Positions 2,308 to 62,749 of a DNA stretch of 64,000 nucleotides are shown one piece after another (positions within the stretch are counted from its first letter, which is position 1; each line of letters opens with the position of its first letter). Source of the stretch: Saccharopolyspora gloriosae (GTDB lineage: Bacteria > Actinomycetota > Actinomycetes > Mycobacteriales > Pseudonocardiaceae); assembly GCF_014203325.1 (NCBI RefSeq), contig NZ_JACHIV010000001.1:2295501-2359500 (forward strand), written 5' to 3'. A model generated the notes under the pieces. It did not search any database, had not been told where the DNA came from, and was given only the letters and a program-made list of their open reading frames with translations. The position numbers and the translations under genes were made by a program.

Positions 2308-3399
2308 ATGTCAGCACCGACCACCTACAAGATCGCCGCCATCCCCGCCGACGGCGTGGGCGCCGAGGTCGTGGCCGCCGGGCGCACCGTCCTCGACGCG
2401 ATGGCGGCGGCCTCCGGCGGGACGTTCGCCTTCGACTGGACCGAATTCCCCTGGAGCTGCGAGTACTACACCCGCACCGGCCGGATGATGGCCGAGGACG
2501 GCCTCGACGTCCTCCGCGACTTCGACGCGATCTACTTCGGCGCCGTCGGCTGGCCGTCGGTCCCGGACCACATCAGCCTGTGGGGGCTGCGGCTGAAGAT
2601 CTGCCAGAACTTCGACCAGTGGGCCAACATCCGGCCGGTCCACTTCCACCCCGGCATCACCTCCCCGTTGCGCAAGGCCGACGACGCCGACCTGGACTGG
2701 GTCGTGGTCCGGGAGAACAGCGAAGGCGAGTACGCGGGCCTCGGCGGGCGGAACCTCTCCGGCCGGGGCGAGGGCAACGAGGTCGCGCTGCAGACCGCGC
2801 TGTTCACCGAACGCGGCTGCGAGCGCATCATCCGGTTCGCCTTCGACCTGGCGCGCGAGCGCCCGCGCAAGAAGGTGTCCTCGGTGACCAAGAGCAACGC
2901 CCAGCAGTTCGGCATGGTGCTGTGGGACGAGACCTTCACCCGCGTCGCGCGGGACTACCCCGACGTCGAGACCGAGAGCGTGCTGGTCGACGCGATGGCG
3001 GCCAAGTTCGTGCTCAAGCCCGAGGACCTGTCGGTCGTGGTGGCCTCGAACCTCAACGCCGACATCCTGTCCGACCTCGGTTCCGCCCTGGCGGGCAGCC
3101 TGGGGCTCGCGGCCAGCGCGAACCTCAACCCGGACCGCCGGTTCCCGTCGATGTTCGAGCCGGTGCACGGTTCCGCGCCGGACATCGCCGGCCGGGGCCT
3201 GGCGAATCCGGCGGGCGCCATCGGGAGCGCGGCCCTCATGCTCGACCACTTCGGGCTGCAAGCCGAGGCGGCCCGGCTCAACGCCGCCATCGAGGCCACG
3301 GCCGCCGCGGGCGTCCTCACACCAGACGTAGGCGGAAACGCGAAAACGGACGAGGTCACTGAAGCCGTTTTGGGGGTCCTTTCGGAATGGCCTGCGTAG
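2308..3399 (+). CDS. D-malate / tartrate dehydrogenase (isopropylmalate dehydrogenase family)
   Basis: A 363-residue NAD-dependent beta-decarboxylating dehydrogenase that should oxidise D-malate to pyruvate, or tartrate to oxaloglycolate/glycerate. The family core is visible: YKIAAIPADGVGAEV at the N-terminus, LRLKICQNFDQWANIRPV, the ENSEGEYAG substrate loop, KSNAQQFGMVLWDE, and the NAD-site segment EPVHGSAPDIAGRGLANPAG. The LKICQNFDQWANIRP segment suits the tartrate/D-malate branch better than isocitrate or isopropylmalate enzymes. GGGAG precedes the ATG. The last two codons and the TAG stop lie within the end of repeat element A. Confidence 0.88.
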   Translation: MSAPTTYKIAAIPADGVGAEVVAAGRTVLDAMAAASGGTFAFDWTEFPWSCEYYTRTGRMMAEDGLDVLRDFDAIYFGAVGWPSVPDHISLWGLRLKICQNFDQWANIRPVHFHPGITSPLRKADDADLDWVVVRENSEGEYAGLGGRNLSGRGEGNEVALQTALFTERGCERIIRFAFDLARERPRKKVSSVTKSNAQQFGMVLWDETFTRVARDYPDVETESVLVDAMAAKFVLKPEDLSVVVASNLNADILSDLGSALAGSLGLAASANLNPDRRFPSMFEPVHGSAPDIAGRGLANPAGAIGSAALMLDHFGLQAEAARLNAAIEATAAAGVLTPDVGGNAKTDEVTEAVLGVLSEWPA

Positions 3400-3570
3400 G
3401 GGTTGGGTGGCGGAACCTCAGCGGGATTCTCGCTGGGGGATCTTTCTCCCAAGTGGCTCCGCCACGAGGGAAAAGCCGTCCTCGCGAGGAAGCAGCTGAG
3501 AACCCGCGGGGGGTCTTCTTGCTCAAGCTGGTCACTGCTCAGCGGCTTCGCCGCGGACAGGACAACGAGC
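3392..3570 (+). repeat. Palindromic intergenic repeat, copy A
   Basis: A full-length copy of the repeat family of this window, reading long hairpin first, then small hairpin. The long hairpin's left arm (3418-3434) and right arm (about 3484-3500) pair only at their ends, because the right arm has the sequence type of other copies. It looks like a chimera or a decayed copy. The inner GTGGC/GCCAC loop stem and the small TCAGCGGC-TTC hairpin (one mismatch) are present. It begins inside the stop codon region of the upstream gene. Confidence 0.85.
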
Positions 3571-4007
3571 AAAAGATCGCTCTGATCGGACGTTTTGGAG
3601 TGCTTCGGGCGTTGAGGCCCCTCTCCGGGGCGCTAGCGGGGCGTGAGCCCGGCTCCGCCGTCGCGAGCCGACCGGAGATGATCTCGTTGCGGTGCTGTGG
3701 TTTTCCCCTCGCGTTCGAGGAGTCCGAGTGCAGTCGCTTCGGTCCGGGCGTCCGCGTGATCGACTCCCGTTCGAGTGATCGTGATGGCGCGGGCGGGTGA
3801 TCGATGCGCCGAATCCCTTGTGCGATCGGCGAATTCGGCTGTCCACTGGAGCCTCGGTGGGCGTGCTCTCGGCCGTCCGCCCAGCAGGACGGGAGCCGTC
3901 GCCGCAGGGGGTTGCGCGCGGCGGTCGCGTCACCGCACGCCCGGCCGAGAACACGTTTTCGGGTCGTGCGCAGGGGATTCTCGAAGCGCGAAGTGGGGGA
4001 CCAGCGC
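3571..4007. other. 437-bp stretch without a convincing gene
   Basis: Open frames exist here on both strands, but none has a good ribosome binding site, a recognisable domain or a codon pattern I trust. The right half may carry the promoter of the multicopper oxidase gene. No clear terminator, operator or RNA was seen. Confidence 0.5.
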
Positions 4008-5831
4008 ATGGCGGAATTGTCGGCACGGCCCGCGGTGGCCGAACGGGTGGACGGCGGGCCGACGTTCGGCCTGACGAAGTTCCTGGACCCGCTCCCGGTG
4101 CCGCCCGTGCGGCGCCCGCGCGGACGCGGCGCCGAACTGGAAGTGCGCGCCGTCACGACCCGGCGCCGGCTGCACGGTCAACTTCCGGAAACCGTGCTGT
4201 GGGCCTACGACGGGCACTTCCCCGGGCCCACCATCGAAGTCGAGCGGAACCAGCGGCTGCGGGTGTCCTGGACCAACGACGTCACCGGCACCATGCCGCT
4301 CGTCGCGGTCCGGGTGCCGCTGGCGCCCGCCGGAACCCCGCCCGCCGAGCTGTCGTCGAACAATCCCGGCTATCCGCGCAACGCGGACGGGAGCCCAGCC
4401 GACGGCGCCGCCCACATCGAAGGCGTCCCGGACGTGCCCGCCTGGCTGGTCACGCACCTGCACGGCGCCGACGCGAACGGCGGCAGCGACGGCTGGGCGC
4501 ACAACGCCGTGCTGCGCGGCCATTCCCAGCTCGCCGAATACCCGAACCGGCAACCCGCCGCGAGCCTCTGGTACCACGACCACGGCATGGCCATCACCCG
4601 CTGGAACGTCCACGCAGGACTGTTCGGCGCGTACCGGATCCGCGACGAACGCGAACGAGCGCTCGGGCTGCCCGACGACCACGACATCCCGCTGCTGATC
4701 TGCGACCGCAACCTCGACACGGACACCGACGGCGACCTGACCGGGCAACTGCTGTTCAAGGTCGACGCGATCGGCACCGCACTGGTGCCGTTCATCGGGC
4801 CGTTCACCCTCGTCAACGGCGTCATCTGGCCGCACCTGGACGTCGACCGGGACACCTACCGGTTCCGGCTGGCGAACACCTCCAACGCCCGGTTCTACCG
4901 GCTGAACCTCATCAACGAGGACGGCGGCTCCGAGAACGACGCCGTGCGCGTGATCGGCACCGACGGCGGGCTGCTGCCCCGCCCGGTCCCGCTTCCCGAA
5001 GCAGGGCTGGTGCTGGCACCGGCGGAACGCGTCGACCTCGCCATCGACTTCGGCCGGGACGACTTCCGCGGACGTGCGCTGCGGCTGACCAACACCGAGC
5101 CGAACGCCGCCCTCGAACCCGACATCGTGCAGTTCCGGGTGCGCGGCCGCCCCGACCGCGGTGCGACCCGCCTGCCCGAGTCGCTGCCCGCCGAACCGCT
5201 CCGGCTCGCGCACGTGCCCGACGAGCACGACCAGGTGTGGATCGCCCTGGTGCCACCCGGCACGGCGGGCATGGCGCACCCGCAGATGTGGGAACTGCGG
5301 GAGCTCGACGGCGACATCCCCCCGCTGCCCGCGGAGAACCTCATCCAGGTCACCGACCCGCGCACCGGGCGGACCAGGACGTTCCAACAGGTCGCGTCGC
5401 TGTTCGACGACACCGTGAGCATCTTCGTCAAGCACGACAGCACCGTGGAGTGGAACTTCATCCACTTCGGCGGCCCGGCGCACCCCATGCACATCCACCT
5501 GGTGCAGTTCCAAGTCGCCGCCCGCCGCGGCTTCACCCCGGACTTCGACGTGGCGCTCGGCGGCACCACCACACCCGCCGCCGGATTCACCGACATCCCG
5601 CTGGAACAGCACGAACGCGGCCGGAAGGACACCATCGCCGTCGCCGCCGGCGAATGGGTCAGCGTGCTCGGCCGCTTCGGCGAATCGACCGGCCAGTTCA
5701 TGTACCACTGCCACATCCTCGACCACGAAGACGAAGGCATGATGCGCCCCTTCGTCGTCCACCCCGCCGAAGTAGCCGATTTCCACCCCCACAGAGGAGG
5801 CCACGGCCACGAGTCTTATCGGGGGGTTTGA
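4008..5831 (+). CDS. Multicopper oxidase (CotA / phenoxazinone synthase-like)
   Basis: A 607-residue, three-cupredoxin blue copper oxidase, expected to oxidise phenolics, aminophenols or bilirubin-like compounds with reduction of O2 to water. All four copper motifs are intact: HLHG near residue 150, WYHDH near 188, HPMHIH near 492, and HCHILDHEDEGMM near 567 with Met as axial type 1 ligand. No signal peptide or Tat motif is seen, so it is probably cytoplasmic like CotA-type enzymes. The start at 4008 is preferred over an in-frame ATG at 3804 because homology begins just after it and a GGGGA site precedes it. Repeat elements A and B flank it. Confidence 0.9.
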   Translation: MAELSARPAVAERVDGGPTFGLTKFLDPLPVPPVRRPRGRGAELEVRAVTTRRRLHGQLPETVLWAYDGHFPGPTIEVERNQRLRVSWTNDVTGTMPLVAVRVPLAPAGTPPAELSSNNPGYPRNADGSPADGAAHIEGVPDVPAWLVTHLHGADANGGSDGWAHNAVLRGHSQLAEYPNRQPAASLWYHDHGMAITRWNVHAGLFGAYRIRDERERALGLPDDHDIPLLICDRNLDTDTDGDLTGQLLFKVDAIGTALVPFIGPFTLVNGVIWPHLDVDRDTYRFRLANTSNARFYRLNLINEDGGSENDAVRVIGTDGGLLPRPVPLPEAGLVLAPAERVDLAIDFGRDDFRGRALRLTNTEPNAALEPDIVQFRVRGRPDRGATRLPESLPAEPLRLAHVPDEHDQVWIALVPPGTAGMAHPQMWELRELDGDIPPLPAENLIQVTDPRTGRTRTFQQVASLFDDTVSIFVKHDSTVEWNFIHFGGPAHPMHIHLVQFQVAARRGFTPDFDVALGGTTTPAAGFTDIPLEQHERGRKDTIAVAAGEWVSVLGRFGESTGQFMYHCHILDHEDEGMMRPFVVHPAEVADFHPHRGGHGHESYRGV

Positions 5832-5850
5832 CGGCTCGTTTTGCTCGGGT

Positions 5851-5968
5851 GGTCGGGTGGCGGAACCTCAGCGGGCTTCTCGCTGCGGGATCTTTTTCCC
5901 AAGTGGCTCCGCCACGAGGGAAAAAGCCGTCCTCGCGAGAAGCCCGCTGAGAACCCGCCGGTGGTCAC
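5851..5968 (+). repeat. Palindromic intergenic repeat, copy B (long hairpin only)
   Basis: Arms CTCAGCGGGCTTCTCGC and GCGAGAAGCCCGCTGAG pair perfectly over 17 bp. The inner stem TTTTTCCC/GGGAAAAA encloses GTGGC-TCC-GCCAC. The second small hairpin is missing and is replaced by the mini-hairpin cluster at 5984-6060. It lies just after the multicopper oxidase stop. Confidence 0.88.
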
Positions 5969-5983
5969 CTTTTGGACGTGGGC

Positions 5984-6060
5984 TATGTGCTTCGCACATA
6001 CAGGCACGGCTTCGCCGCAATGCAGGCTTGCTTCGCAGCCCAAGGCACGGCTACGCCGCA
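5984..6060. repeat. Cluster of four mini-hairpins with TTC/TAC loops
   Basis: TATGTGC-TTC-GCACATA (5984-6000), CGGC-TTC-GCCG (6007-6017), GGCTTGC-TTC-GCAGCC (about 6025-6040) and CGGC-TAC-GCCG (about 6049-6059) follow each other within 77 bp. The loops resemble the small hairpin of the long repeat family. Role unknown. Confidence 0.6.
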
Positions 6061-6104
6061 AAAGCACGGTCTTTGGGCCCAACGCATGGTTTCGTCGTAG
6101 AACG

Positions 6105-6245
6105 GGCGGGCCGTGGGGGCTGGTTTCGGCTTGTGGGGGTGTGCTGTTTTCGGGGTTCGCGGGGTTGTTTGGGGGTGGGGGTTTGCTTGGGGGCGGGTGG
6201 TGATCGGGGGGTTGCTGGGGGTGGTTGTCGGGATTGTGCTGGTTG
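6105..6245. other. Strand-asymmetric G/T-rich tract with many G-runs
   Basis: The plus strand is almost free of A and poor in C and carries many runs of three or more G. It lies just before the siderophore importer promoter. G-quadruplex formation is possible. A minus-strand frame through it gives a Pro/Thr-rich peptide that I consider spurious. Confidence 0.5.
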
Positions 6246-6277
6246 ACACTCTTGTGGGTTAGGTAAGGCTGTCTTTA
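6243..6277 (+). promoter_or_regulatory. Promoter with iron box (DmdR/IdeR-type) for the siderophore importer
   Basis: A TTGACA hexamer at 6243-6248 is followed by TTAGGTAAGGCTGTCTTTA at 6259-6277. This matches 12 of 14 core positions of the actinobacterial iron box TTAGGNNAGNCTNNCCTAA. The GTG start of the ABC operon is 11 bp further on. Iron-dependent repression is inferred from the site and the gene content. Confidence 0.6.
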
Positions 6278-6287
6278 GTGTACGGCT

Positions 6288-7127: not shown

Positions 7128-7165
7128 TCGGCGTCGCCGGTCACCACTCCCCAGGCAGGAGAGAC

Positions 7166-8140: not shown

Positions 8141-8147
8141 CCGCGCG

Positions 8148-10232
8148 GTGAACGGTGGTAAGACCCTGATCCGACCGCCCGCCGCTCCGGCCGCACCGGT
8201 GCGCCGGAGCGCGCGGCTGGTGCTCCTGGTGCTCGTGCTGGGCGCGCTCGTCGTGCTGGGCTCCGCGGTGCACCTCACCCAGGGGACCTCCTCGGTGGAC
8301 GTCGTCGGCGTGCTGCGCTGGATGTTCGGCGGCGGCACCGACGCGGCTGCGGCGGTCGTCGTCGAGTCCAGGCTGCCGCGACTGCTGACGGCGCTGCTGG
8401 TGGGGACGGCGCTGGGCGTGGCGGGCTCGGTGCTGCAATCGGTGGCGCGCAACGTGATGGCGTCCCCGGACACGCTCGCCGTGGACGCCGGGGCGCACCT
8501 GGCGATCGTCGCCGTCGCCGCCTTCGGCGCCTCGCTGCCGCTGCTGGGGACGACGGGCATCGCGTTCGCCGGAGGGCTGGGCGCGGCGCTGCTGGTGATC
8601 TCGCTGTCCGGGCTCGGCGGCACCGGCATCGTGCGGCTGGTGCTGGCGGGCACCGCGACCGCGTTCGCGATGATGTCGCTGACGCGGATCCTGCTGCTGC
8701 TGTTCGACCAGGAGACCCGCGGGCTGTTCGCGTGGGGGTCCGGATCGCTGGGACAGACCGGGCTCGACGGGGTGCGGACGCTGGCGCCGGTGATCGGCGT
8801 CGCGGTCGTGGCGCTGCTCGCGATCGCCCGGCGGCTCGACCTGGTCCACCTGGGCGATGACCACGCGCGAAGCCTCGGCGTCCACGTGGGGCGGATCCGG
8901 TTCGCCTCGATCGCGCTGGCGGTGCTGCTGGCGGCGTCGGCGGTGACCCTGGCGGGCCCGGTCGGCTTCATCGGGCTGGCCGCGCCCGCGCTGGTGCGGC
9001 TGCTGGCGAACCAGGTGCCCGGCCTGCACCGGCACGCGGCGCTGATCCCGATCGCCGGGGCGACCGGCGTGGTGCTGCTGCTGGCGGCGGACGTGCTGCT
9101 GCGCGCCATGATCGGAGCGCAAGGAGCCCTGGAGGTCCCCACCGGTGTCGCCACGACCCTGCTCGGCGCGGTCTTCCTGATGGTGCTGTGCCGCAACATC
9201 CGCGTCACCACCACCTCGGCGGAACCGCCCGCCGCCGGTGTCCGCGGCGGGGTCACCGTCCTGCGCCACCGGCTCGTCGTCGGTGGGCTGGTGCTCGCGA
9301 CAGCCGGGGTGGTGACGGGATCGGTGCTGCTCGGCGACACCTTGCTGCTGCTGGGCGACCTGGCGAACTGGGTGACCGGACAGGCCGGGCCGATGGTCAC
9401 CGGCGTGATGGCGAACCGGGTGCCGCGCGTCGTCGCCGCATTGCTGGCCGGAGCCGCGCTGGCGCTGGCCGGTGCGGTGATCCAAGCGGTGGCGCGCAAC
9501 CCGCTGGCCGACCCGGGCATCATCGGCGTCGCCGGCGGAGCGGGCGTCGGCGCGGTCACCGTGATCACGCTGTGGTCCGGCGCGGGCTTCTGGATGCAGG
9601 CGAGCGGAGCGGGCGTCGGCGCCGCCGTGGCGACCGCCGTGGTGTTCGCGATGGCGGCGAAGGGCGGTTTCGCGGGGCAGCGCCTGGTGCTGATCGGCTT
9701 CGGAGCGCAAGCGGGCACCCAGGCGCTGGTGACGTTGCTGATCACGCTGTCCGACCCGTGGAACGAGACGAAGGCGCTGACCTGGCTGGGCGGCTCGACG
9801 TACGGACGGACCTACGAGCACCTGGTGCCGATGGCGCTGGCGATGCTGGTGCTCATCCCGGTCCTGATCCGGGCCCGCGGCGAACTGGACCTCCTGTCGG
9901 TGGACGACGAGACGCCGCGCGTGCTGGGCGTGCCGGTGCCGAAGGCGCGGCTGCTGCTGCTCGCGTGCGCGGTCCTGCTCACCGGCACCGCCGTGGCAGG
10001 AGTGGGAGTGCTCGCGTTCGTCGGGCTCGTCGCTCCGCACGCGGCGCGCGCGATCGTGGGCAGGCGGCACTCCCGCGTGCTCCCGGTGGCCGCGCTGCTC
10101 GGCGGCATCCTGGTGTGCGCGGCCGACACCCTGGGACGCACCGTCATCGCCCCGGACCAGCTCCCGGCGGGCCTGATGACGGCCCTGATCGGAGCCCCGT
10201 ACTTCACCTGGCTACTCTCCCGAAACCGCTAG
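8148..10232 (+). CDS. Fused two-domain iron-siderophore permease (FhuB-like)
   Basis: A 694-residue integral membrane protein with two FecCD domains in tandem, residues about 15-345 and 370-690. Each has its own PR(L/V) coupling start (ESRLPRLLTALLVG; NRVPRVVAALLAG) and roughly ten transmembrane helices. Most systems use two separate permeases; the single-chain FhuB arrangement makes one polypeptide enough for the pore. The GTG start lies 7 bp after the lipoprotein stop, so translation is probably coupled. Repeat C follows the stop. Confidence 0.9.
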   Translation: MNGGKTLIRPPAAPAAPVRRSARLVLLVLVLGALVVLGSAVHLTQGTSSVDVVGVLRWMFGGGTDAAAAVVVESRLPRLLTALLVGTALGVAGSVLQSVARNVMASPDTLAVDAGAHLAIVAVAAFGASLPLLGTTGIAFAGGLGAALLVISLSGLGGTGIVRLVLAGTATAFAMMSLTRILLLLFDQETRGLFAWGSGSLGQTGLDGVRTLAPVIGVAVVALLAIARRLDLVHLGDDHARSLGVHVGRIRFASIALAVLLAASAVTLAGPVGFIGLAAPALVRLLANQVPGLHRHAALIPIAGATGVVLLLAADVLLRAMIGAQGALEVPTGVATTLLGAVFLMVLCRNIRVTTTSAEPPAAGVRGGVTVLRHRLVVGGLVLATAGVVTGSVLLGDTLLLLGDLANWVTGQAGPMVTGVMANRVPRVVAALLAGAALALAGAVIQAVARNPLADPGIIGVAGGAGVGAVTVITLWSGAGFWMQASGAGVGAAVATAVVFAMAAKGGFAGQRLVLIGFGAQAGTQALVTLLITLSDPWNETKALTWLGGSTYGRTYEHLVPMALAMLVLIPVLIRARGELDLLSVDDETPRVLGVPVPKARLLLLACAVLLTGTAVAGVGVLAFVGLVAPHAARAIVGRRHSRVLPVAALLGGILVCAADTLGRTVIAPDQLPAGLMTALIGAPYFTWLLSRNR

Positions 10233-10257
10233 AGCCTTCCTGTCTCGTGGTTGCTTG

Positions 10258-10443
10258 GCGTAGGGGTCGGGTGGCGGAACCTCAGCGGGATTCTCGCTGC
10301 GGGATCTTTTTCCCAAGTGGCTCCGCCACGAGGGAAAAAGCTGTCCTCGCGAGAATCCCGCTGAGAACCCGCGGCGGTGCCGGTGGGCAGGGTGGTCGCT
10401 GCTCAGCGGCTTCGCCGCTGACAGGAAAAGGATCACTGCTCGT
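10258..10443 (+). repeat. Palindromic intergenic repeat, copy C
   Basis: A full copy. Long-stem arms CTCAGCGGGATTCTCGC (10281-10297) and GCGAGAATCCCGCTGAG (10349-10365) pair perfectly. The inner stem is TTTTTCCC/GGGAAAAA around GTGGC-TCC-GCCAC. The small hairpin TCAGCGGC-TTC-GCCGCTGA is at 10403-10421. It follows the permease stop and faces copy D. Confidence 0.9.
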
Positions 10444-10502: not shown

Positions 10503-10680
10503 GTGGTCGTTGTCTTGTCAGCGGCGGAGCCGCTGAGCGTTGACCGGCTTGAGCAAGCCGACCACCGGCGGGTTCTCAGCGGCTTCCTCGCGAGGACAGC
10601 GATTTCGCTGTGTAGGGACCTACATGAGAAATCGATCCCGCAGCGAGGAAGCCGCTGAGGTTCCGCTGCCTGACCAGCTG
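10503..10680 (-). repeat. Palindromic intergenic repeat, copy D
   Basis: A full copy in opposite orientation to C. The small hairpin TCAGCGGC-GGA-GCCGCTGA is at 10518-10536. Long-stem arms CTCAGCGGCTTCCTCGC (10575-10591) and GCGAGGAAGCCGCTGAG (10643-10659) pair perfectly. The inner loop is a second type, with CGATTTC/GAAATCG around TGTAGG-GA-CCTACA, shared with copies G and K. It follows the lexA-like stop on the minus strand. Confidence 0.9.
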
Positions 10681-10707
10681 CTCAAGCCTGGTTGCTCACG
10701 GAGGGGA

Positions 10708-11370
10708 TCAGACGCTGCGGAGTACTGAGATCACGGTGCCGAGGATGGTGGCGTGGTCGCCGTCGATGACCTCGTAGGCGGGGTTGCGCGGTTCGAGGTG
10801 GACGTGGCCGTTGCGGCGGCGGTAGACCTTCACCGTGGCCTCGTCGTCGAGCAGGGCGGCGACGATCTGCCCGGAGTGCGCCTCCTGCTGCTGGCGCACG
10901 ATCACGGTGTCGCCGTCGCAGATCGCCGCGTCGATCATGGAGTCGCCGCGCACGCGCAGCGCGAACACGGTGCCGCGCCCGGCGAACTCGCGGGGCAGCC
11001 GGAGCGTGTCGTCCACGTGCTCGTCGGCCGCGATGGGCGTCCCGGCGGCGATGTCGCCGACCACGGGCACCGTCACCGAATCCTCGTCCGAGCGCTCGCC
11101 CGCGGAGCCGCGCAGGAACGCGCGCACGTCGATGGGCCGGGACACCGTGTCGCCGCGCCGCAGGAAGCCCTTCTCCTCCAGGCTCGCGAGGTGCTTGGAC
11201 ACCGAGGAGGAGGACCGCAGGCCGACGGCCTCGCCGATCTGCTTGGTGCTGGGCGAATACCCGTCGCGGACCACCTGGTCCCGGATCGTCGCCAGGATCC
11301 GCTGCTGGCGCAGCGGCAGCGAGGAGGCGTCCAGGTGCTCGAACGGGTCAAGATCGTCGTAGGTGGTCAC
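10708..11370 (-). CDS. LexA-family repressor/self-protease, possibly a second LexA
   Basis: A 220-residue protein. The winged helix spans residues about 20-85 (PSTKQIGEAVGL, SSVSKHLASLEEKGFL), followed by an S24 autoprotease domain. The LexA cleavage pair is Ala109-Gly110 (GDIAAGTP), with catalytic Ser144 in GDSM and Lys181 in ATVKVY. All residues needed for RecA-stimulated self-cleavage are present. No canonical actinobacterial SOS box (GAAC-N4-GTTC) was found upstream. Instead GGTAG-TGGT-CTACC lies 10 bp before the start. It stands alone rather than beside nrdR, so it may be a paralogue with its own regulon. Confidence 0.82.
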   Translation of the reverse strand: MTTYDDLDPFEHLDASSLPLRQQRILATIRDQVVRDGYSPSTKQIGEAVGLRSSSSVSKHLASLEEKGFLRRGDTVSRPIDVRAFLRGSAGERSDEDSVTVPVVGDIAAGTPIAADEHVDDTLRLPREFAGRGTVFALRVRGDSMIDAAICDGDTVIVRQQQEAHSGQIVAALLDDEATVKVYRRRNGHVHLEPRNPAYEVIDGDHATILGTVISVLRSV

Positions 11371-21387: not shown

Positions 21388-21513
21388 TGCGTAGGGGGCA
21401 GATGGCGGAACCCCGGTTGTCTTCTCGCTGCGGGATCAATTTTCCGACTGGCTCCACACGCAAAATTGCTGTCCTCGCGAGAAGACGACTGAGAACCCGC
21501 CGGTGGTCCGGTT
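21388..21513 (+). repeat. Palindromic intergenic repeat, copy F, overlapping a coding end
   Basis: A degenerate copy: the left arm around GTTGTCTTCTCGC and the right arm GCGAGAAGACGACTGAG pair over the loop-proximal part only. The inner loop is changed (CAATTTT/AAAATTG). The alditol oxidase frame runs into it from the right and ends at a TGA at 21436, so roughly the last 30 residues of that protein are repeat-encoded. The small hairpin is missing, as if the coding sequence replaced it. Confidence 0.8.
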
Positions 21514-22779
21514 GCTCTGGTCGAAGACGTGGTGGTCGAGGAAGTCGTTGCGGAAGCGGTGGTCGGGGTCCCAGCGTTCGGCGAGGGCGCGGAAGTCGGG
21601 CAGGCGGGGGTAGCGCTCCGCGAGCACGTCGGGGCCCATCGCCCACACCTTGCCCCAGTGCGGGCGGGCGCCGAACGGTGCCAGCGCCGCTTCGACCGAC
21701 GGAAGCGCGGCCTCCACGGCGGACTGGTCGAGGCGCCAGGTGAAGTGGATCGCCAGCGAGTCCCGCTCCCAGGCGGGGCTGAGCCAGCGGTCGTCCGCCG
21801 CGACCGAGCGCAGTTCGCTCACCAGCAGCACGGGCGCGAACGCGGGGCCCGCTTCGCGCAGCGCCTCGACGGCGGCCGCCGCGTGTTCGGCGCCCACCAG
21901 GTACTCGCTCTGGATTTCGGCGCCGCTGCTGGGAGTTCGCCCGGCCCGGAAGTGCGGCAGCCGCTCGTGCCACGGGCCGGGCGCGGCCTGCACGGTGACG
22001 TTCTCCGCCGGACCGCCCGCCATCGGGTGCCGCGGCCCGTCCACGAGGCCGACGCCGACGCGGTCGAACGGCCCTGCCTCGTGCGGGATGCCGTCGCGTT
22101 CCTTCACCACGCCCTGCCGGACGCCCGCGTCGTCGAAGTCGGTGAACAGGCTGACGCTGTACCCGCTGGCCAGCAGCGCGCCGAGCTCGCCCGGCAGCGC
22201 CGTCCACGGCATCGATCCGTACACGTGCTGGGTGACTTGGTAGGCGGGTTCGACGGCGAGCTCCAACCGCGTGATCACGCCGAGCGCGCCGAGCCCGACC
22301 ACCGCGCCGGGGAACTCGGCGTCGCCCTCGCGCAGCTCGCGGAGCTCGCCGCGCGCGGTCAGCACCTCCAACGCCCGCACGTCGGAGGCCAGGCCGCGCA
22401 GCCTGGATCCGGAGCCGTGCGTACCGGTGGAGATCGCGCCGACGACCGACAGGTCCGGCAGGGAGGCCAGGTTCGCCAGCGCCCAACCGCGCGCATGCAG
22501 GTGCTCGGCCAGTTCGCGGTAGCGCACCGGGCCGGTGACCGACACGACGCGGCGCGCGGAGTCGATCTCGATCCCGGTCGGCATCGCCGCCAGCGAGATC
22601 CGCAGATCCGCGCTGTCGGCGATGCCGTTGAAGGTGTGCCCGGTGCCCGCGACCCGCACCCGATCGCCCGTGGTGACCGCCTCGGCGAGCTCGTCGAGGC
22701 CGCGGGGCTCGGCGAACCTCGGTGCGCGGTAGGCGTAGTTGCCCGACCAGTTCGTGCGGATCACTGCTCTCCTAGGCAT
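21436..22779 (-). CDS. Alditol/xylitol oxidase (AldO-like) with repeat-derived C-terminus
   Basis: A 447-residue FAD oxidase of the vanillyl-alcohol oxidase family that should oxidise xylitol or sorbitol at C1 to the aldose, producing H2O2. NWSGNYAYRAP at the N-terminus, the covalent-flavin His48 in AGTGHTFNG, GAISTGTHGSG in the FAD domain and PHWGKVWAM near the active site all match AldO. AldO proteins are near 420 residues. Here the expected end at RNDFLDHHVF is followed by about 30 residues encoded by repeat F. It starts 24 bp after the xylose isomerase stop, so the two form an operon converting xylitol to xylose to xylulose. Confidence 0.88.
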   Translation of the reverse strand: MPRRAVIRTNWSGNYAYRAPRFAEPRGLDELAEAVTTGDRVRVAGTGHTFNGIADSADLRISLAAMPTGIEIDSARRVVSVTGPVRYRELAEHLHARGWALANLASLPDLSVVGAISTGTHGSGSRLRGLASDVRALEVLTARGELRELREGDAEFPGAVVGLGALGVITRLELAVEPAYQVTQHVYGSMPWTALPGELGALLASGYSVSLFTDFDDAGVRQGVVKERDGIPHEAGPFDRVGVGLVDGPRHPMAGGPAENVTVQAAPGPWHERLPHFRAGRTPSSGAEIQSEYLVGAEHAAAAVEALREAGPAFAPVLLVSELRSVAADDRWLSPAWERDSLAIHFTWRLDQSAVEAALPSVEAALAPFGARPHWGKVWAMGPDVLAERYPRLPDFRALAERWDPDHRFRNDFLDHHVFDQSNRTTGGFSVVFSRGQQFCVWSQSEN

Positions 22780-51780: not shown

Positions 51781-51840
51781 GTCACCAGACGATGGGTCAC
51801 CAGACGATGGGTCACCAGACGATGCGTCACCAGGCGATGG
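51781..51840. repeat. Four tandem 15-bp units copying the P450 stop region
   Basis: GTCACCAGACGATGG occurs at 51781, 51796, 51811 (last base C) and 51826 (one change). The rightmost unit is the last codons and stop of the P450 gene on the minus strand (PIAW-stop). The 15-bp period keeps the frame, so four successive Trp-stop pairs follow each other. Confidence 0.9.
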
Positions 51841-53348: not shown

Positions 53349-54368
53349 TCACTGGACGGACCAGCCTCCGTCGGACGGGAGCAGTGCGCCGTTGATGTTG
53401 ACCGAGTCGTCGCTGAGCAGGAACGCGACCGATGCGGCGATGTGCTCGGGCTCGGCGATGGTGGGCAGCGTCGCCAGCAGCGGTTCCAGGCGTTCCCGGC
53501 CCATCGTCGAGGACATGCCGCCTTCGATGCCGGTCGCGACACCGCCGGGCGCGACCGCGTTGACCCGGATACCGCTGGGGCCGTACATGAACGCCGCGCT
53601 GCGGGTGAGCCCGACGACGGCGTGCTTGGACGCGGTGTAGGCGGTGCCCGAGGTGGAGCCGCGCAGCGCGGCCTCCGAGGTGATGTTGACGATGGATCCG
53701 CGCTCCGCCGCCATCATCAGCGGCAGCACCGCCCTGGTGAGCCGGAACATGCCGGTGAGGTTCACGTCCAGCACCCGCTGCCACAGCTCGTCGTCGACCT
53801 CGTGCAGCGGCACCGCGGAATCGGTGATCCCGGCGACGTTCGCGAGCGCGTCGGCCCGGCCGTCCGCGGCGGCCAGGATCGCGGCCACCCCGTCCTCGCG
53901 GGTGATGTCGGCGCGCACCGGCACGACCTCGTGGCCGTCGAGCTCGTTCGCCAGGGCGTCGAGCCGGTCCTGGGCGATGTCGGCGGCCACCACCCGGCCG
54001 CCTTCGCGGGCGACTCGGGAGGCGGTGGCCCGGCCGATCCCCGATCCGGCGCCGGTGATGATGACGGTGCTGCCGGCGAAGCGGCCCTGCGTGATCCGCT
54101 CCTGCCACCGCGGCGCGGGCGCGGGGCGGGGTGCGTCGGGCGAGACCCCGGCCGCGGCGTTGGCCTCGGCGGCGAGGCGTTCCAGCTCGTCGGCACCGAT
54201 GCGTCCGCCGCTCATCTCCACCAGCCGGCTCATGGTGAAGTGCCGGACGGCGGTGAGCAGCGCCGGGCTTTGGCCGTTGTCCTCCAGCACGCCGCGCAGG
54301 ATCGGGCCGCCTGCGGGGTGGTCGAGCCATTCGGCCACAGTGGACTCCAGCGTCAGCGGAGCGGGCAT
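53349..54368 (-). CDS. Short-chain dehydrogenase with an N-terminal helical module
   Basis: A 339-residue NAD(P) oxidoreductase. The SDR domain begins near residue 97 with VIITGAGSGIGRATASRV; NVAG is near 175, the Ser near 200 and the YxxxK motif YTASKHA near 225, so the catalytic set is complete. The first 90 residues form an extra helical segment (TLESTVAEWLDHPAGGPILR) resembling small modules at the C-terminus of some glycoside hydrolases and in certain actinobacterial SDRs. AGGAG precedes the ATG. It lies 76 bp after an esterase gene and is probably in its operon. Confidence 0.88.
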   Translation of the reverse strand: MPAPLTLESTVAEWLDHPAGGPILRGVLEDNGQSPALLTAVRHFTMSRLVEMSGGRIGADELERLAAEANAAAGVSPDAPRPAPAPRWQERITQGRFAGSTVIITGAGSGIGRATASRVAREGGRVVAADIAQDRLDALANELDGHEVVPVRADITREDGVAAILAAADGRADALANVAGITDSAVPLHEVDDELWQRVLDVNLTGMFRLTRAVLPLMMAAERGSIVNITSEAALRGSTSGTAYTASKHAVVGLTRSAAFMYGPSGIRVNAVAPGGVATGIEGGMSSTMGRERLEPLLATLPTIAEPEHIAASVAFLLSDDSVNINGALLPSDGGWSVQ

Positions 54369-55362: not shown

Positions 55363-55443
55363 CGATCGCTCCTTGGCTCGAACGGCGCTCGGCTCCCGCA
55401 TCGTGCGTGCTCGGACTGGTTCCGCGAGGAACACGACCGACTG

Positions 55444-55461: not shown

Positions 55462-55462
55462 T

Positions 55463-56685: not shown

Positions 56686-56702
56686 GGGTGTCCGGGTCGT
56701 TC

Positions 56703-56730
56703 GGCGCAGGGGGCAGGTGGCGGAACCTCA
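56703..56730 (+). repeat. Truncated end of a palindromic repeat
   Basis: GGGGGCAGGTGGCGGAACCTCA matches the outer end of the common repeat up to the first bases of the long stem, then stops. Full copy J begins about 40 bp on, in the opposite orientation. It is probably the remnant of a second element. Confidence 0.7.
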
Positions 56731-56773
56731 CTGCCTGTCCTTGATCTTGTCGTTCCAGGTGAGCGGCGTTTGC

Positions 56774-56962
56774 TGGTCGTTGTCCTGTCAGCGGCGAAGC
56801 CGCTGAGCAGCGACCACGCACGCAGCCGGACCACCCGCGGGTTCTCAGCGGTTTCCTCGCGAGGACAGCTTTTTTCCTCGTGGCGGAGCCACTTGGAAAA
56901 AAGATCCCGCAGCGAGGAAACCGCTGAGGTTCCGCCACCCGACCCGCTACGCAGGCCAAGTC
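56774..56962 (-). repeat. Palindromic intergenic repeat, copy J
   Basis: The small hairpin TCAGCGGC-GAA-GCCGCTGA is at 56788-56806. Long-stem arms CTCAGCGGTTTCCTCGC (56844-56860) and GCGAGGAAACCGCTGAG (56912-56928) pair perfectly; the T/A change relative to copies D and G is compensated on both arms. Inner GTGGC-GGA-GCCAC stem intact. Confidence 0.9.
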
Positions 56963-57000
56963 GAAGACAGGCAGTCACATCCGAGAACAGGGTTTCCGTC

Positions 57001-58623: not shown

Positions 58624-59313
58624 TCAGCCGATCTCGCGCAGCAGCGGCGCGATCTGCTCCGCCACCACGGGATCGTGGCTCGCGGTGGTGCTGATCATGG
58701 TGATGAGCTGATCGGTGAGCCAGTCCTCGAACACCTCGCGCGGCGGGTTGTGCGTCTGCAACCAGGTGACGCACGTCGTCTCCACCAGCGCCACCCAGCC
58801 TCGCAGCGTCAGCAGCAGCAGCGGGGCGGGATCGTCGATGCCGACGCGCTGGCGCACGATCTCCACCACGTGGTTGCGCACCTTGTCGATGAGCGTCTCG
58901 GTCTCGCTGGTCGCGATGGTGGAGCCGCTGCGCAGCAGCGCGGTGTAGCTGCTGGCGAAGACCTCCACGGACGAGACGAACTCGGCGAGCCCGAGGCGCA
59001 GCTGCGTGATGAGGTCGCCTTCCTGCGGCAGCGCGATCCGCTCGATCAGCCCGTCGACGACCGTGGTCAGCGCCGCGACGTGCACTTCGCGCAGGTTCGA
59101 GAAGTAGCGGTAGAACAACGCCCGCGACACCCCGGCCTCGGCGACGATGTCGTCGATCGTCACGTCGTCCATCGCGCGTTCGCCGTAGAGCTGCAAGGCC
59201 GCGCCGAGCAGGTGCTCCCGGCGCTCGGCGGGACTCATCCGGCGTCGCGGACGTTCGGTGCCCGAGGCGGCCTCGGATCGGGGCGGTGCGGACGTGTCTC
59301 TGGTGCGCGGCAT
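58624..59313 (-). CDS. TetR-family regulator
   Basis: A 229-residue repressor. The helix-turn-helix is in residues about 28-75 (REHLLGAALQLYGERAMDDV; VSRALFYRYFSNLREVHVAAL), preceded by a 25-residue polar tail. The helical C-terminal domain contains LLLLTLRGWVALVETTCVTW. Regulators of this type lie beside diiron oxygenase/FprB genes in actinomycetes, so it may control the convergent pair. Its own operator is not obvious. Confidence 0.85.
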   Translation of the reverse strand: MPRTRDTSAPPRSEAASGTERPRRRMSPAERREHLLGAALQLYGERAMDDVTIDDIVAEAGVSRALFYRYFSNLREVHVAALTTVVDGLIERIALPQEGDLITQLRLGLAEFVSSVEVFASSYTALLRSGSTIATSETETLIDKVRNHVVEIVRQRVGIDDPAPLLLLTLRGWVALVETTCVTWLQTHNPPREVFEDWLTDQLITMISTTASHDPVVAEQIAPLLREIG

Positions 59314-59723
59314 CGTCCCTACATCATCACATGTTTGCCCACGTCAGTCCCACCCGTGCTGGTCACAGGGCACCGCTGCGCACCGCGTTCCGTCCACTGT
59401 GCGCAGCCGGAGCGAAGTGGACGGTGCGCCGACGTGCGATCCGATGCGCCGGTGGCGGCGCGACGAATGCACCATGACTCCCCGGAACGGGCCGTGCGCA
59501 TGTCATGCGGAAATCGGCGGAACCATGAGTGCGATGCGCGGAAAATGTGCACCGCCGATTTTCCCCATGTCTGCTGACAATTCCACGATGGTGATCTCGT
59601 TTCACCGATGAACGCCGGTTCGAGTGAAGATTGTTGCTTCGTCGATCGGGACTTGGTCTGATTTTTTGTATTCGCCGCGTCCGGAATCGACGACGCGGCC
59701 CGGGTGAGATCAGGGGAGTTTTC
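59314..59723. other. 410-bp stretch without a gene, with an AT-richer promoter-like part
   Basis: Base composition falls in GC between about 59560 and 59680 (for example TGATTTTTTGTATTC), unlike the surrounding DNA. This probably holds the promoter of the secreted protein gene. Short frames here lack ribosome binding sites. No hairpin or repeat stands out. Confidence 0.45.
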
Positions 59724-60311
59724 ATGGGGAAATCCAGCACGTCCGGTATCGGAGCGAAGAAGGCCGCCGGCATCGCCGCGGCCGTGCTCTGCTGCATCGG
59801 CGCGACGATCACGACGACCTCCGCCGCGGCGGCCGACGACACCGCGGCGCGGGCGACCTCCGTTCGGTGTGACGCCGGCGGGAGAGTGGAGTTCAGCCCC
59901 GGCCTGCTCCCGATGCCGCAGGACGTGACGGCGTCGGTGACCAGCACTCGGCACTCCTGCACGGACTTCAGCGGCAACGGGATCGCCCGCGCCTCGTTCG
60001 AAGGCGTCTTCGGGGCGAGGCTGTCCTGCGGGCTCGGTGCGGGCACCGGAACGCCGGGAAGCGCGCGAATCGGCTGGGAATACGAGAACGGCACGACCGC
60101 GGAGAGCGCGGCCGAGGTGACCTTGACCGGGCAGACGCTCAACCAGGGCAATTTCACCGGAACCGTCGAGGACGGTCCGTTGGCGGGGCAGAGCGTAGAA
60201 GGGAACTTCGCCGTCGATCTCGCCTCGGGCGGTATCGGTTGCGCTCAAGGGGCGCCCACCGGCGGATTGACGACCGCCAAGTTCACCGGTGGGTTCACCA
60301 TCGTCGAATGA
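59724..60311 (+). CDS. Secreted protein of unknown function
   Basis: A 195-residue exported protein. The signal peptide (AAGIAAAVLCCIGATITTTS, cleaved near residue 35) is followed by about 155 residues rich in Gly, Thr and Ser with four Cys likely forming two disulfides, and alternating strands, suggesting a beta-sandwich. CAGGGGAG precedes the ATG at 59724; an earlier in-frame ATG at 59631 has none. I do not recognise the family. Confidence 0.7.
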   Translation: MGKSSTSGIGAKKAAGIAAAVLCCIGATITTTSAAAADDTAARATSVRCDAGGRVEFSPGLLPMPQDVTASVTSTRHSCTDFSGNGIARASFEGVFGARLSCGLGAGTGTPGSARIGWEYENGTTAESAAEVTLTGQTLNQGNFTGTVEDGPLAGQSVEGNFAVDLASGGIGCAQGAPTGGLTTAKFTGGFTIVE

Positions 60312-60330
60312 TCCGAAACGGATGCGCGTT

Positions 60331-60372
60331 GCCGATGTGCGGTGCCCTCGGTACGAGGCACCGCACATCGGC
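60331..60372. terminator. Bidirectional terminator hairpin
   Basis: A perfect 16-bp stem GCCGATGTGCGGTGCC/GGCACCGCACATCGGC with a 10-nt loop, 20 bp after the secreted-protein stop. It also lies downstream of the small ORF on the other strand. Confidence 0.85.
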
Positions 60373-60408
60373 GTGCACGTCCCGGAGTCCGCGAACAGGC
60401 CGTCCCGC

Positions 60409-60543
60409 TCAGCGGGAGTGCGGATCCGGCGGGGTGCGCGGGCCGGTGTGCAGCAGCGGGTCGCGGTGGGCGTTCAGGCGGGACGTCGCCAGGTCCTTCA
60501 GCCGACGCAACTTCGCCAGCGGGGAGTTCGTGGAGTGGCGCAT
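60409..60543 (-). CDS. Candidate 44-residue basic small protein
   Basis: ATG at 60543 is preceded by a near-ideal GAGGAGG site 6 nt upstream. The frame runs 44 codons to TGA and is followed by the bidirectional terminator. The product is basic (LAKLRRLKDLATSRLNAHRD) with a Pro-rich tail and could form one amphipathic helix. It lies 101 bp downstream of the beta-lactamase and may be cotranscribed. No known family. Confidence 0.5.
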   Translation of the reverse strand: MRHSTNSPLAKLRRLKDLATSRLNAHRDPLLHTGPRTPPDPHSR

Positions 60544-60644
60544 CTCGTCCTCCTCGTCAGTCGTCGGGTGATCCGCATCCGCCGGTTTTCCACACCTGGC
60601 TCCGGAAAAACCTCTTTCCGCGGAACGTCACCGGAGATCCGCGA

Positions 60645-61544
60645 TCACCCCAGGGCGCGCACGGCGACGCGGGTGGCTTCCGCGATCAGGGCGTTGTCGT
60701 AGTCGGCGTCCGGAGCGGGCCGGTCGGACAGCACCGCGAGCATGATCGGGGCGCGGTGCGGCGGCCGGATGATCGCGATGTCGTTGCGCGTTCCGTAGTC
60801 CGCGGCACCCGACTTGTCGCCGACCACCCAGCCCTCGGGAACACCGGCCGGGATGAGCTCCTGGGTGATCGGGCTCCCGGTCATCGTGTCGTTGAGCAGC
60901 GCGCGTTGCGGCTCGGGCAGCACGTCACCCGCGGTGAACGCGCGCAGGGTGTTCGCGAGGGCGCGGGGTGTGCTGGTGTCGCGCGGATCGCCGGGGGAGG
61001 TCCGGTTCAGGTCGGTCTCCGTCCGGTCGGAGCGGGTCGTCGCGTCGCCGAGCGCGCGCAGCGCGGCGGTGAGCTCGCCGGGGCCGCCGAGCTCGCGGAA
61101 CAGCAGGTTCGCGGCGGTGTTGTCGCTGTAGCGGATGGCGGCGTCGATCACCTCGCGCAACGTCATCCCGTCGGCCACGTGCTGCTCGGTCACGGGCGAG
61201 TTGTCCACGAGGTCGTCGGCGGAGTACGTGATGCGGCGTTCGAGCGCGTCGATCGTGTTGCGCCGCAGCACGACGCCGGCCGAGAACGCCTTGTGCGTGG
61301 AGGCGAAGGCGAAGCGGTCATCGGCCCGGAACGCGACCTCCCGGCCGGTCCCGGTGTCCAGCGCGTACACCCCGAGGCGCGCGTCGAAACGGCGCTCCAG
61401 GTCGTCGAACTCCGCGTAGTGGACGGTGGCCGCGGTCGCCGGGGGAGCGGGCGTGGTCGGTGCCGCGTCGACACCCGAGCAGCCCGCGAGGGCGAGCAGG
61501 GTCGTGGCGGCGACGGTGGCTTGGCGCAGGCGCTGCGTGAGCAC
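60645..61544 (-). CDS. Class A beta-lactamase, lipoprotein form
   Basis: A 299-residue serine beta-lactamase. Signal peptide with lipobox LALAGC (Cys22), so probably membrane-anchored. Catalytic Ser82 and Lys85 are in STHK, the SDN loop is at 140-142, Glu176 in ETDLN matches the deacylating Glu of the omega loop, and KSG at 244-246 replaces the usual KTG. All active-site parts are present. The GTG at 61544 has GAGAGGA upstream. It is divergent from a LysR gene, a common arrangement for inducible class A enzymes. Confidence 0.93.
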
Positions 61545-61616
61545 GGTGTTCCTCTCATCGGTGGTGGTCGCGATCAGTCTTGCGAGCACCGGTGATGCTG
61601 TCCAAGACGAAAACGA

Positions 61617-61631
61617 TCGGTTCCATGCCGA
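61617..61631. promoter_or_regulatory. Candidate LysR site between beta-lactamase and its regulator
   Basis: TCGG-TTCCATG-CCGA, an inverted repeat in the 106-bp divergent gap, in an AT-richer stretch. Position suggests control of both genes. Confidence 0.4.
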
Positions 61632-61650
61632 AAGCGCATACACTGAGGTG

Positions 61651-62523
61651 GTGGATCTCGTGGGCGGCTGCCGGGCGTTCGTCAGCGTGAGCGAAGTCGG
61701 CAGCTTCACCGGCGGTTCGGCGGCGGCGGGCATCCCGCAGCCGGTCGCCAGCCGGCGCATCGCCGCGCTGGAACGCCACCTAGGGGAGCGGCTGTTCGAC
61801 CGCTCGGCCCGGCGGGCGCGGCTGACCCCGTTCGGCCGGGACATGCTGCCCCGGGCACGCCGCCTGGTGCGGCTCGCGGACGCGCTGGAGCAGGACGCGA
61901 AGCGCGCGCGGTTGCGGCCGCTGCGGCTGGCGGTGCCCGCGACCTGCCCCACCCGGGCGCTCGCGGAGCTCGACGCCGAGGCGCGCTCGCACGAGCTGTT
62001 CCTCGAGTTCCGCCCGGCCGCCCCCGCGGAACGGCTCGACTTCGCCCACACCCACGACGTGCGCGCCGCGCTCACCGCCGTGCCCGCCGACGAGGCCGTG
62101 TGGACCGTGCCGCTGGGCGTCGCCTCGGCCGTGGACCTCGATCGGGCGGCGGTGCACCTGGATTCGCTGCGCGCCGGTCGCACCGGCCGGGCGCCGCGCC
62201 GCCGGGTGTGGATCCAGCCGGAGGACGACGTGCCGCACGTGCGGGACCGGCTGCTGCGGGTGCGCGACGCGGTGGGGCTGCGGCCCACGCAGGTCGTCGT
62301 GGCAGAGTCGTTGAGCGCGGGCGTCGCCGACGTCCTGGGCTCGGCGGACCTGCTGCTGTGCTCGCGGGCGCAGGCGGACGAGTTCGCGTTGCACTGGCGT
62401 CCGATCGCCGAGCTGCCGCTGGCGCGCGGCTACGACGTCACCGCGGAGGCCGGTCCCGACGCCGACCGGTTGCGCACCGCGTTGTGGCGGGGCATCGCCC
62501 GCTGCCTCGGCGCGGACGCCTGA
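61651..62523 (+). CDS. LysR-family regulator, probable beta-lactamase regulator
   Basis: A 290-residue regulator with a winged helix at the N-terminus ([39 protein letters not shown]). The effector domain is less typical and shorter than usual. The start is one of two adjacent GTG codons (61648 or 61651) after TGAGG. Divergence from the beta-lactamase implies AmpR-like control, but the inducer could differ. Repeat K follows. Confidence 0.85.
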
Positions 62524-62569
62524 CCGCCCGTCCCTGCCGAGGACTCCTTTCGAGATGATCTTTTGATCG

Positions 62570-62749
62570 GTCTCTTGTCAGTGGCCGGAGCCGCTGAGCG
62601 GTGACCGGCTTGAGCAAGGTGACCATCGGCGGGTTCTCAGCGGCTTCCTCGCGATGACAGCGATTTCGTGGTGTATGGACATACATGAGAAAGCGATCCT
62701 GCGGCGGCGGAGCCGCTGAGGTTCCGCTACCCGACCAGCCACGCAGGTC
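62570..62749 (-). repeat. Palindromic intergenic repeat, copy K
   Basis: The small hairpin TCAGTGGC-CGGA-GCCGCTGA lies near 62578-62597. The long stem pairs only at its outer end (CTCAGCGGCT/AGCCGCTGAG), because the right arm is altered to GGCGGCGGAGCCGCTGAG. The inner loop is of the D/G type, with TGTATG-GA-CATACA. It lies between the LysR gene and the next serine hydrolase. Confidence 0.85.

What the first reader, a model, noticed from the sequence alone, without database searches (positions are those of the whole stretch)
3392..62749. A dense family of roughly 120-190 bp nested palindromic repeats, at least eleven copies in 64 kb
Copies lie at 3392, 5851, 10258, 10503, 16480, 21388, 48814, 50374, 53159, 56774 and 62570. 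Full copies share a conserved outer end (GTGGCGGAACCTCAG), a 17-bp stem, an inner nested hairpin, a spacer with GGTGGTC and a second 8-bp hairpin (TCAGCGGC/GCCGCTGA); B and F lack the second hairpin. All are intergenic or at gene ends, in both orientations. I know of no named family with this layout; it could be a MITE- or REP-like element.
Basis: seen in the sequence. Interest (0 to 1): 0.85.

Follow-up and report, generated by a model that had tools for sequence, protein, structure and literature searches.

The report
Palindromic mini-transposon landing at stop codons
The repeats are real: they belong to a large, recently mobile family of small jumping DNA elements in Saccharopolyspora and related bacteria, which lie between genes, often right at a stop codon where they do no harm, and share their ends with insertion sequences that also land inside them.

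Summary
All eleven copies are confirmed, plus a split remnant at 56688-56730. The window's genome (6.83 Mb, unnamed, same genus as Saccharopolyspora sp. NFXS83) has 88 copies in the 1.2 Mb examined; the element occurs in 25 of 100 genomes of its taxonomic family, 12 of 46 genera. Complete copies are mostly 225-250 bp, with terminal inverted repeats (type A CYGCCTGTCTTYGATCTYG, type B GGAGTCCTTTCRGAAYGA) and a 3-bp target duplication, TGA/TCA. Relatives show empty sites. No RAYT in this genome, no Rfam match. The A ends match a 963-bp IS5-family insertion sequence in S. rosea (10 copies, all with TCA/TGA duplicated, 9 at one position inside the palindrome). The B ends match a second IS5-family IS in congener G002. 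Best reading: a MITE moved by IS5-family transposases that cut CTNAG-like sites; a TGA stop is such a site and is restored by the duplication. The stem is kept by compensatory change without G-U excess over C-A, pointing to DNA rather than RNA. New family of a known kind, with exchangeable ends and a core that is an IS landing pad.

The parts
3391..3563 (+). copy 1 (core), at the stop of an isocitrate/isopropylmalate dehydrogenase-like gene (2308-3399)
   Evidence: R1 164.8 bits; gene
5841..6007 (+). copy 2; second hairpin replaced by other small hairpins
   Evidence: R1 151.7 bits
10255..10427 (+). copy 3 (core); follows the stop of a FecCD-type permease gene (8220-10232)
   Evidence: R1 205.8 bits
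10281..10297 (+). copy 3: 5' arm of the 17-bp main stem
   Evidence: alignment columns 27-43
10349..10365 (+). copy 3: 3' arm of the 17-bp main stem
   Evidence: alignment columns 96-112
10402..10421 (+). copy 3: second hairpin CTCAGCGGCTTCGCCGCTGA
   Evidence: sequence
10512..10685 (-). copy 4; follows the stop of a LexA-like gene (10708-11370, -), convergent with the gene before copy 3
   Evidence: R1 164.3 bits
16488..16660 (-). copy 5
   Evidence: R1 202.4 bits
21386..21528 (+). copy 6, degenerate, second hairpin lost, overlaps the 3' end of gene 21436-22764 (-)
   Evidence: R1 108.7 bits
48817..48991 (+). copy 7, inner hairpin of the CGATTTC type
   Evidence: R1 174.9 bits
50377..50557 (-). 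copy 8; no element in G001, G002 and G003 (gap 251 bp here; 12, 10 and 9 bp there)
   Evidence: R1 110.9 bits
53161..53333 (-). copy 9; follows the stop of a short-chain dehydrogenase gene (53349-54368, -)
   Evidence: R1 174.3 bits
56731..56974 (-). copy 10, complete 244-bp element with type A TIRs at both ends (core 56782-56954)
   Evidence: R1 198.6 bits
56728..56730 (.). target duplication TCA, left of copy 10
56975..56977 (.). target duplication TCA, right of copy 10
56688..56730 (+). remnant of an older copy into whose outer stem (GGAACCTCA) copy 10 has inserted
   Evidence: (family D8)
62572..62746 (-). copy 11, type B-like ends (3 and 4 mismatches)
   Evidence: R1 132.6 bits

Best explanation
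The repeat is a MITE (non-autonomous DNA transposon). A complete type A copy is ~245 bp: an ~18-20 bp terminal inverted repeat, a ~90-bp nested palindrome, a spacer, a second hairpin and the other TIR. IS5-family transposases acting in trans recognise the TIRs and insert the element at CTNAG-like sites, duplicating the central three bases, mostly TGA/TCA. In a ~72% GC genome the stop codon TGA is a site at which insertion costs little: the duplicated TGA restores the stop and leaves the next gene whole. Insertions inside genes are purged, so copies pile up at gene ends. The core itself contains CTCAG/CTGAG and is a favoured landing site of the same insertion sequences and of further copies. 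Shown: anatomy, TIRs, duplications, empty sites, insertion sequences with matching ends, nested insertions. Inferred: that these transposases move the element, and that purging causes the gene-end bias.
For: Copy number: all 150 candidates scored of 10173 first-look ones match, E 7.5e-30 or better; 88 copies in 1.2 Mb. Mobility: gap 253 bp here against 3 in G002, 226 against -4, 208 against 8, 229 against 10; reverse case 221 in G002 against 3 here; for own copies scoring 50 or more between adjacent orthologues, absent in 18 of 25 (G002), 3 of 10 (G001), 8 of 8 (G003). TIRs: 52 type A sites in the genome, 0 for the reversed pattern. Duplication: flanking 3-mers equal in 8 of 19 two-ended copies, 3.3 expected, and 10 of 13 (12 S. 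rosea, 1 own), 6.2 expected. Pooled copies with TGA or TCA on both sides agree in 17 of 20, one-sided Fisher p 0.003. At two empty sites one TGA became two. Partners: IS_A (NCBIfam IS5 family transposase), ends GTGCCTGTCTTTGATCTTGG, 10 copies in S. rosea, all 10 with TCA or TGA duplicated, 9 of 10 in the element's outer stem; two of the 10 share flanks, so at most 9 independent insertions, 8 of them in the element. IS_B, 906 bp, 4 identical copies in G002, ends GGGTCCTTTCAGAATGC / GGGTCCTTGCAGAATGA, all 4 at CTTAG. IS_A homologues at 77-78% in G017: all 3 examined have the element's GGAACCTCA/TGAGGTTCCG motif on one side. Context: 41 of 88 convergent, 45 tandem, 2 divergent; convergent excess p 8e-10, divergent lack p 3e-10 by intergenic bases.
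Against: 75 of 123 G000 copies show no TIR at 4 mismatches or fewer on either side, although the sample includes loci fetched because they had a type A end. A generic inverted-repeat scan gave small excesses and none in G002 (0 of 21, null 1.6%). A general scan for duplicated k-mers over 88 flank pairs showed no clear excess (6 with 8 bp or more, 2.8 expected; 7 with 7 bp, 8.2 expected). No IS with type A ends was seen in the window's own genome: no paired ends at IS spacing at 2 mismatches or fewer, no IS_A homologue at 1e-30. Across 100 genomes of the taxonomic family IS_A homologues (E 1e-60 or better, 14) and the element (25) share 4 genomes, 3.5 expected. IS_A and IS_B transposases are 25% identical. 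The duplications were read with a score that rewards them. Purging was not separated from a true preference for stop codons.
Confidence: 0.83

Rival explanations
1. REP/BIME-type repeat spread by a RAYT (Y1 HUH transposase) through single-strand transposition.
For: High copy number, imperfect palindrome, extragenic, near stop codons; GTAG often precedes the stem; Y1_Tnp genes exist in G004 and G005.
Against: PF01797 has no hit in G000, G001, G002 and G003, all with many copies; double-ended TIRs and a 3-bp duplication; far longer than REPs.
Confidence: 0.03
2. A structured RNA, transcription terminator or mRNA-end stabiliser, kept at gene 3' ends by selection on the transcript.
For: 41 of 88 copies in convergent gaps, 68 of 88 with the 5' side facing a co-directional stop; compensated stem, 97 double-change cells against 28.2 shuffled; two nearly invariant G-U pairs in the inner stem on this strand (39 and 41 of 41).
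Against: In the variable stem of 88 distinct arm pairs G-U (23) does not exceed C-A (28), as selection on one RNA strand would predict; element absent from many orthologous gaps; no Rfam match. A side function as terminator is not excluded.
Confidence: 0.08
3. MIRU-like repeat: own unknown mobilisation, insertion at stop/start overlaps.
For: Same logic of harmless insertion at TGA; one clear GTGA overlap site; MIRU insertion at start codons with -4 nt spacing in PMC12548453 (passage).
Against: Ends match IS5-family insertion sequences; MIRU length and tandem arrays differ (recalled); no sequence comparison made.
Confidence: 0.04

Closest known systems
IS5-family insertion sequences with 3-bp targets, and MITEs derived from insertion sequences
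   Same: TIRs nearly those of IS_A and IS_B; 3-bp duplication; no room for a transposase gene
   Different: The nested palindromic core; one core carries different TIR types; the core is itself the IS landing site
MIRU of mycobacteria
   Same: Sits at stop/start codons so that genes stay intact (PMC12548453, passage)
   Different: Size, coding potential and mobilisation differ (partly recalled); shared sequence not tested
REP/REPIN with RAYT
   Same: Many extragenic palindromic copies; palindromes act as IS targets (PMC1525189, abstract read)
   Different: No Y1 hit in four copy-rich genomes; TIRs and a duplication; much longer
RUP, BOX, NEMIS/Correia-type small repeats (recalled)
   Same: Small non-coding elements, some thought to be moved in trans by an IS transposase (recalled)
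   Different: Other hosts, TIRs and targets as recalled; no sequence comparison made

Membership tests
MITE | terminal inverted repeats | tested here: met
   19 of 179 copies with both type A/B ends at 5 mismatches or fewer, 13 with both ends of the S. rosea type at 4 or fewer; but 75 of 123 G000 copies show neither end
MITE | target site duplication | tested here: met
   8 of 19 and 10 of 13; two empty sites
MITE | polymorphic insertion / empty sites | tested here: met
MITE | TIRs shared with an autonomous element | tested here: met
   IS_A in S. rosea, IS_B in G002; not found in the window's own genome
MITE | no transposase gene | tested here: met
   two-ended copies are 208-260 bp and 231-282 bp (the 13 good pairs), too short for one
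MITE | actual transposition in trans | not testable with these tools
   needs a bench assay
IS5 family (IS_A, IS_B) | IS5-type DDE transposase | tested here: met
   IS_A: PF13340 and PF01609 over cut-off, NF033580 199.5 bits, cut-off 110. IS_B: PF13340 over cut-off, 282-aa frame
IS5 family, group with 3-bp targets | 3-bp target duplication | tested here: met
   10 of 10 IS_A copies TCA/TGA; 4 of 4 IS_B copies have CTTAG on both sides, so the exact length (3 to 5) is open. Group name partly recalled; IS1031 group with three-nucleotide sites in PMC2516522 (passages)
REP with RAYT | Y1 HUH transposase in the genome | tested here: not met
   no hit in G000-G003; 1 and 2 hits in G004 and G005
REP with RAYT | 20-40 bp GTAG/CGTC-tagged palindrome | tested here: not met
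   17-bp stem inside a ~173-bp core; definition from the start of the PMC3733652 abstract as listed
Rfam RNA family | match over gathering score | tested here: not met
   0 matches in the window
MIRU | shared sequence or tandem arrays | not tested
   no MIRU sequence compared

The most novel reading that the evidence does not exclude
A palindromic DNA core that outlives any one transposase: it stays palindromic by a DNA-level process (hairpin-guided correction or selection), exchanges its terminal repeats to ride on successive, only distantly related IS5-family transposases, hides at stop codons, and in return serves as a safe landing pad for those insertion sequences.
Probability: 0.3. Interest if true: 0.72.

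Novelty: new variant of a known kind. Interest (0 to 1): 0.52.

Why it matters
A mobile repeat for which I found no name, with some hundreds of copies in this genome, shapes many gene ends in a genus used for antibiotic and insecticide production (use recalled). It comes with candidate transposases. It shows a simple way to be harmless: a transposon that duplicates TGA when it lands on a stop codon. A core conserved across genera while the ends change, and that is a hot spot for the same insertion sequences, makes exchange of ends between MITEs and DNA-level upkeep of palindromes testable.

Tried and rejected
General k-mer scan for duplications: no clear excess; only the 3-bp test at defined TIR ends gave one. 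Y1/RAYT search: none in four copy-rich genomes. Rfam: none. RNA reading weakened by the G-U/C-A count. An 8-bp duplication (CTGTGAGA) seen at one site was dropped because other sites support 3 bp. Copies 'present' in two relatives were first taken for orthologues; 5 of the 14 comparisons printed have opposite orientation, so several are separate insertions in one gap. The search for copies with a gene between their halves listed 7 pairs; one was real and proved to be an IS inserted into the element (L293). IS_A and element do not co-vary over 100 genomes. The PF13340 genes of the window's own genome (5 hits) showed no convincing A or B ends. Papers: PMC3733652, PMC12548453, PMC3610266, PMC12306157 and PMC2516522 seen by term passages only, PMC1525189 abstract and outline only, all others as search listings.

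Full report
Observation. The eleven listed copies exist and are one family. A model of 41 copies (173 positions, 42 pairs) finds all eleven with E 1.6e-22 or better and adds a remnant at 56688-56730. Eight of the eleven are in the model; the other three score 109-152 bits.

Extent. The window lies in an unnamed single-contig genome of 6,825,909 bp. Congener G001 has a contig of 315,088 bp, the length of a contig of Saccharopolyspora sp. NFXS83, so the genus is Saccharopolyspora as NCBI uses the name (inference). All 150 candidates scored in the own genome match, of 10173 first-look ones. In 1.2 Mb from three places 88 copies score 20 bits or more, some 500 per genome by extrapolation. All five held congeners carry it. 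In 100 genomes of the taxonomic family 25 match, in 12 of 46 genera, at most 27 candidates per genome being scored. Of 16 genomes of the order outside the family one gave a single weak match (E 4.8e-5).

Anatomy. Core: outer GCGG/CCGC pairs, an AAC/AAC internal loop, a 17-bp stem, an inner stem of two types (TTTTTCCC...GGGAAAAA or CGATTTC...GAAATCG), a spacer, a second hairpin. Stem positions 6-12 vary: 50 distinct heptamers among 88 distinct arm pairs, yet 530 of 616 cells are Watson-Crick against 318 when arms are shuffled (153 of 179 copies measured, 26 dropped for want of the anchors). On the 41-copy alignment 97 cells show double changes against 28.2 shuffled, and slid structures fall from 97.4% to 42-50% paired. 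G-U (23) does not exceed C-A (28) in the variable stretch. Selection on one RNA strand should favour G-U, so the pairing seems kept at the DNA level. Against this, two inner-stem pairs are G-U on this strand in 39 and 41 of 41 copies.

Ends. Beyond the core lie terminal inverted repeats. Type A (CYGCCTGTCTTYGATCTYG) has 52 sites at 2 mismatches or fewer in the own genome, 0 for the reversed pattern, and 1-11 in each of five congeners. Type B (GGAGTCCTTTCRGAAYGA) occurs in G000 and G002. S. rosea copies carry GWGCCTGTCTTYGAACTC. Of 123 copies sorted as G000, 11 have A/A ends, 2 B/B, 1 A/B, 34 one recognisable end, 75 none; the sample includes loci fetched for a type A end, so A is over-represented. 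A generic inverted-repeat scan gave a modest excess of scores of 10 or more: G000 5.8% of 86 (null 0.8%), G001 9.1% of 11 (3.0%), G002 0 of 21 (1.6%), G003 11.1% of 9 (3.7%), other loci 9.2% of 153 (2.9%). Many copies are thus old, truncated or carry other ends. Shorter forms with both TIRs and the palindrome lost also occur.

Target. With both ends defined, the three flanking bases agree in 8 of 19 copies (3.3 expected from composition) and in 10 of 13 of a second set, 12 from S. rosea and 1 own (6.2 expected). One copy is in both sets. Pooling copies with TGA or TCA on both sides gives 17 of 20 agreeing, one-sided Fisher p 0.003 (table counted by hand; independence of copies not tested beyond removing identical ones). 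Two empty sites show it directly: G000 'ggctgaACCatg' against G002 with CTGA at both junctions, and G002 'cactGTGAgacc' against G000 with GTGA at both junctions. A blind search for longer duplications found no clear excess.

Mobility. For own copies scoring 50 or more between adjacent orthologous genes, the element is absent in 18 of 25 comparisons with G002 (median protein identity 90%), 3 of 10 with G001 (93%) and 8 of 8 with G003 (80%). Several gaps measure -4 to 12 bp in the relative, so whole elements entered tight gene pairs. Five of 14 'shared' comparisons are in opposite orientation.

Partners. A search for element halves held apart by a gene gave one real case, in S. rosea: an insertion sequence (IS_A, 963 bp) with ends GTGCCTGTCTTTGATCTTGG, nearly the type A TIR, and an IS5-family transposase (NF033580 199.5 bits, cut-off 110; PF13340, PF01609). 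S. rosea has 10 copies at 99-100% identity. All 10 are flanked by duplicated TCA or TGA, and 9 of 10 sit at one place in the outer stem, GGAACCTCA|IS|TCAGCGG or its complement (in one search the left end of L398 was mis-set). Two of the ten (L399, L400) share flanks, so at most 9 insertions are independent, 8 of them in the element. PF13340 has 12 hits in G002, among them four identical 906-bp insertion sequences whose ends are the type B TIR, all four with CTTAG on both sides; three have an element within 300 bp. IS_A homologues at 77-78% in G017 (3 of 6 copies examined) each have the element's GGAACCTCA/TGAGGTTCCG motif on one side, and the model finds an element at 2 of the 3; at 64-65% in G018 (3 of 13 examined) ends are similar and one lies inside an element. 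The duplications seen were read with a score that rewards them and are only illustrative. IS_A has no homologue in the own genus at 1e-30, and no paired type A ends at IS spacing were listed in the own genome; the transposase that amplified type A there is lost or unrecognised. Over 100 genomes the two share 4 genomes, 3.5 expected; the two closest homologues are in G017 and G018, both element-rich.

Context. Of 88 copies none is inside a gene, 41 lie between convergent genes, 45 between tandem genes, 2 between divergent genes; background gaps are 174, 691 and 171. Convergent excess p 8e-10 and divergent lack p 3e-10 by intergenic bases, 8e-11 and 2e-5 by number of gaps. In 68 of 88 the 5' side faces the stop of a co-directional gene; in 58 of these the core begins -9 to 27 bp from that stop, where the TIR would start. 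In the window two convergent genes (FecCD permease, LexA-like) each have their own copy after the stop, and copy 10 is a complete 244-bp element nested in an older one with TCA duplicated.

Mechanism. A transposase that cuts CTNAG-like sites and duplicates the central three bases can insert at a TGA stop without harm, since the stop is rebuilt. Inside genes insertions would be lost. That accounts for the gene-end position, both orientations and tight-pair insertions without a special function. The core's own CTCAG/CTGAG explains nesting. Whether the palindrome aids transposition or acts on transcripts is open.

Comparison. It works like, and meets the sequence criteria of, an IS5-derived MITE. 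It fails the RAYT criterion. It resembles MIRU in its use of stop/start codons (PMC12548453, passage), without tested sequence kinship. IS insertion into palindromic repeats is known for REPs (PMC1525189, abstract). I found no paper naming this family (nine searches); subscription journals are mostly not covered.

Noticed in passing
window 5965-6075; L153: Copy 2 and another G000 copy carry, in place of the second hairpin, a run of other small hairpins (GGCTATGTGCTTCGCACATACAGGCACGGCTTCGCCGC...), perhaps a second 3' module or a separate REP-like array.
   Followed up: no
window 51781-51840: Tandem 15-bp units GTCACCAGACGATGG, four copies.
   Followed up: no
G000:C1 24854-24975, 3429725-3429847, 1753605-1753722, 547354-547493, 3913169-3913237: 69-140 bp stretches with type A TIRs at both ends and the long palindrome lost, in some apparently by deletion between CTCAGCGGC repeats of the main stem and second hairpin.
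   Followed up: partly
G004 and G005 (L038, L040, L043): Two congeners do have Y1_Tnp genes (one and two hits).
   Followed up: no
G000:C1, list: In the capped list of 150 copies, 27 of the 30 below 2.0 Mb are in + orientation; but all copies of the first 400 kb are 15 + and 10 -, so this may come from the capped list.
   Followed up: partly
window 62781-63683: Gene of the beta-lactamase family (PF13354) next to copy 11.
   Followed up: no
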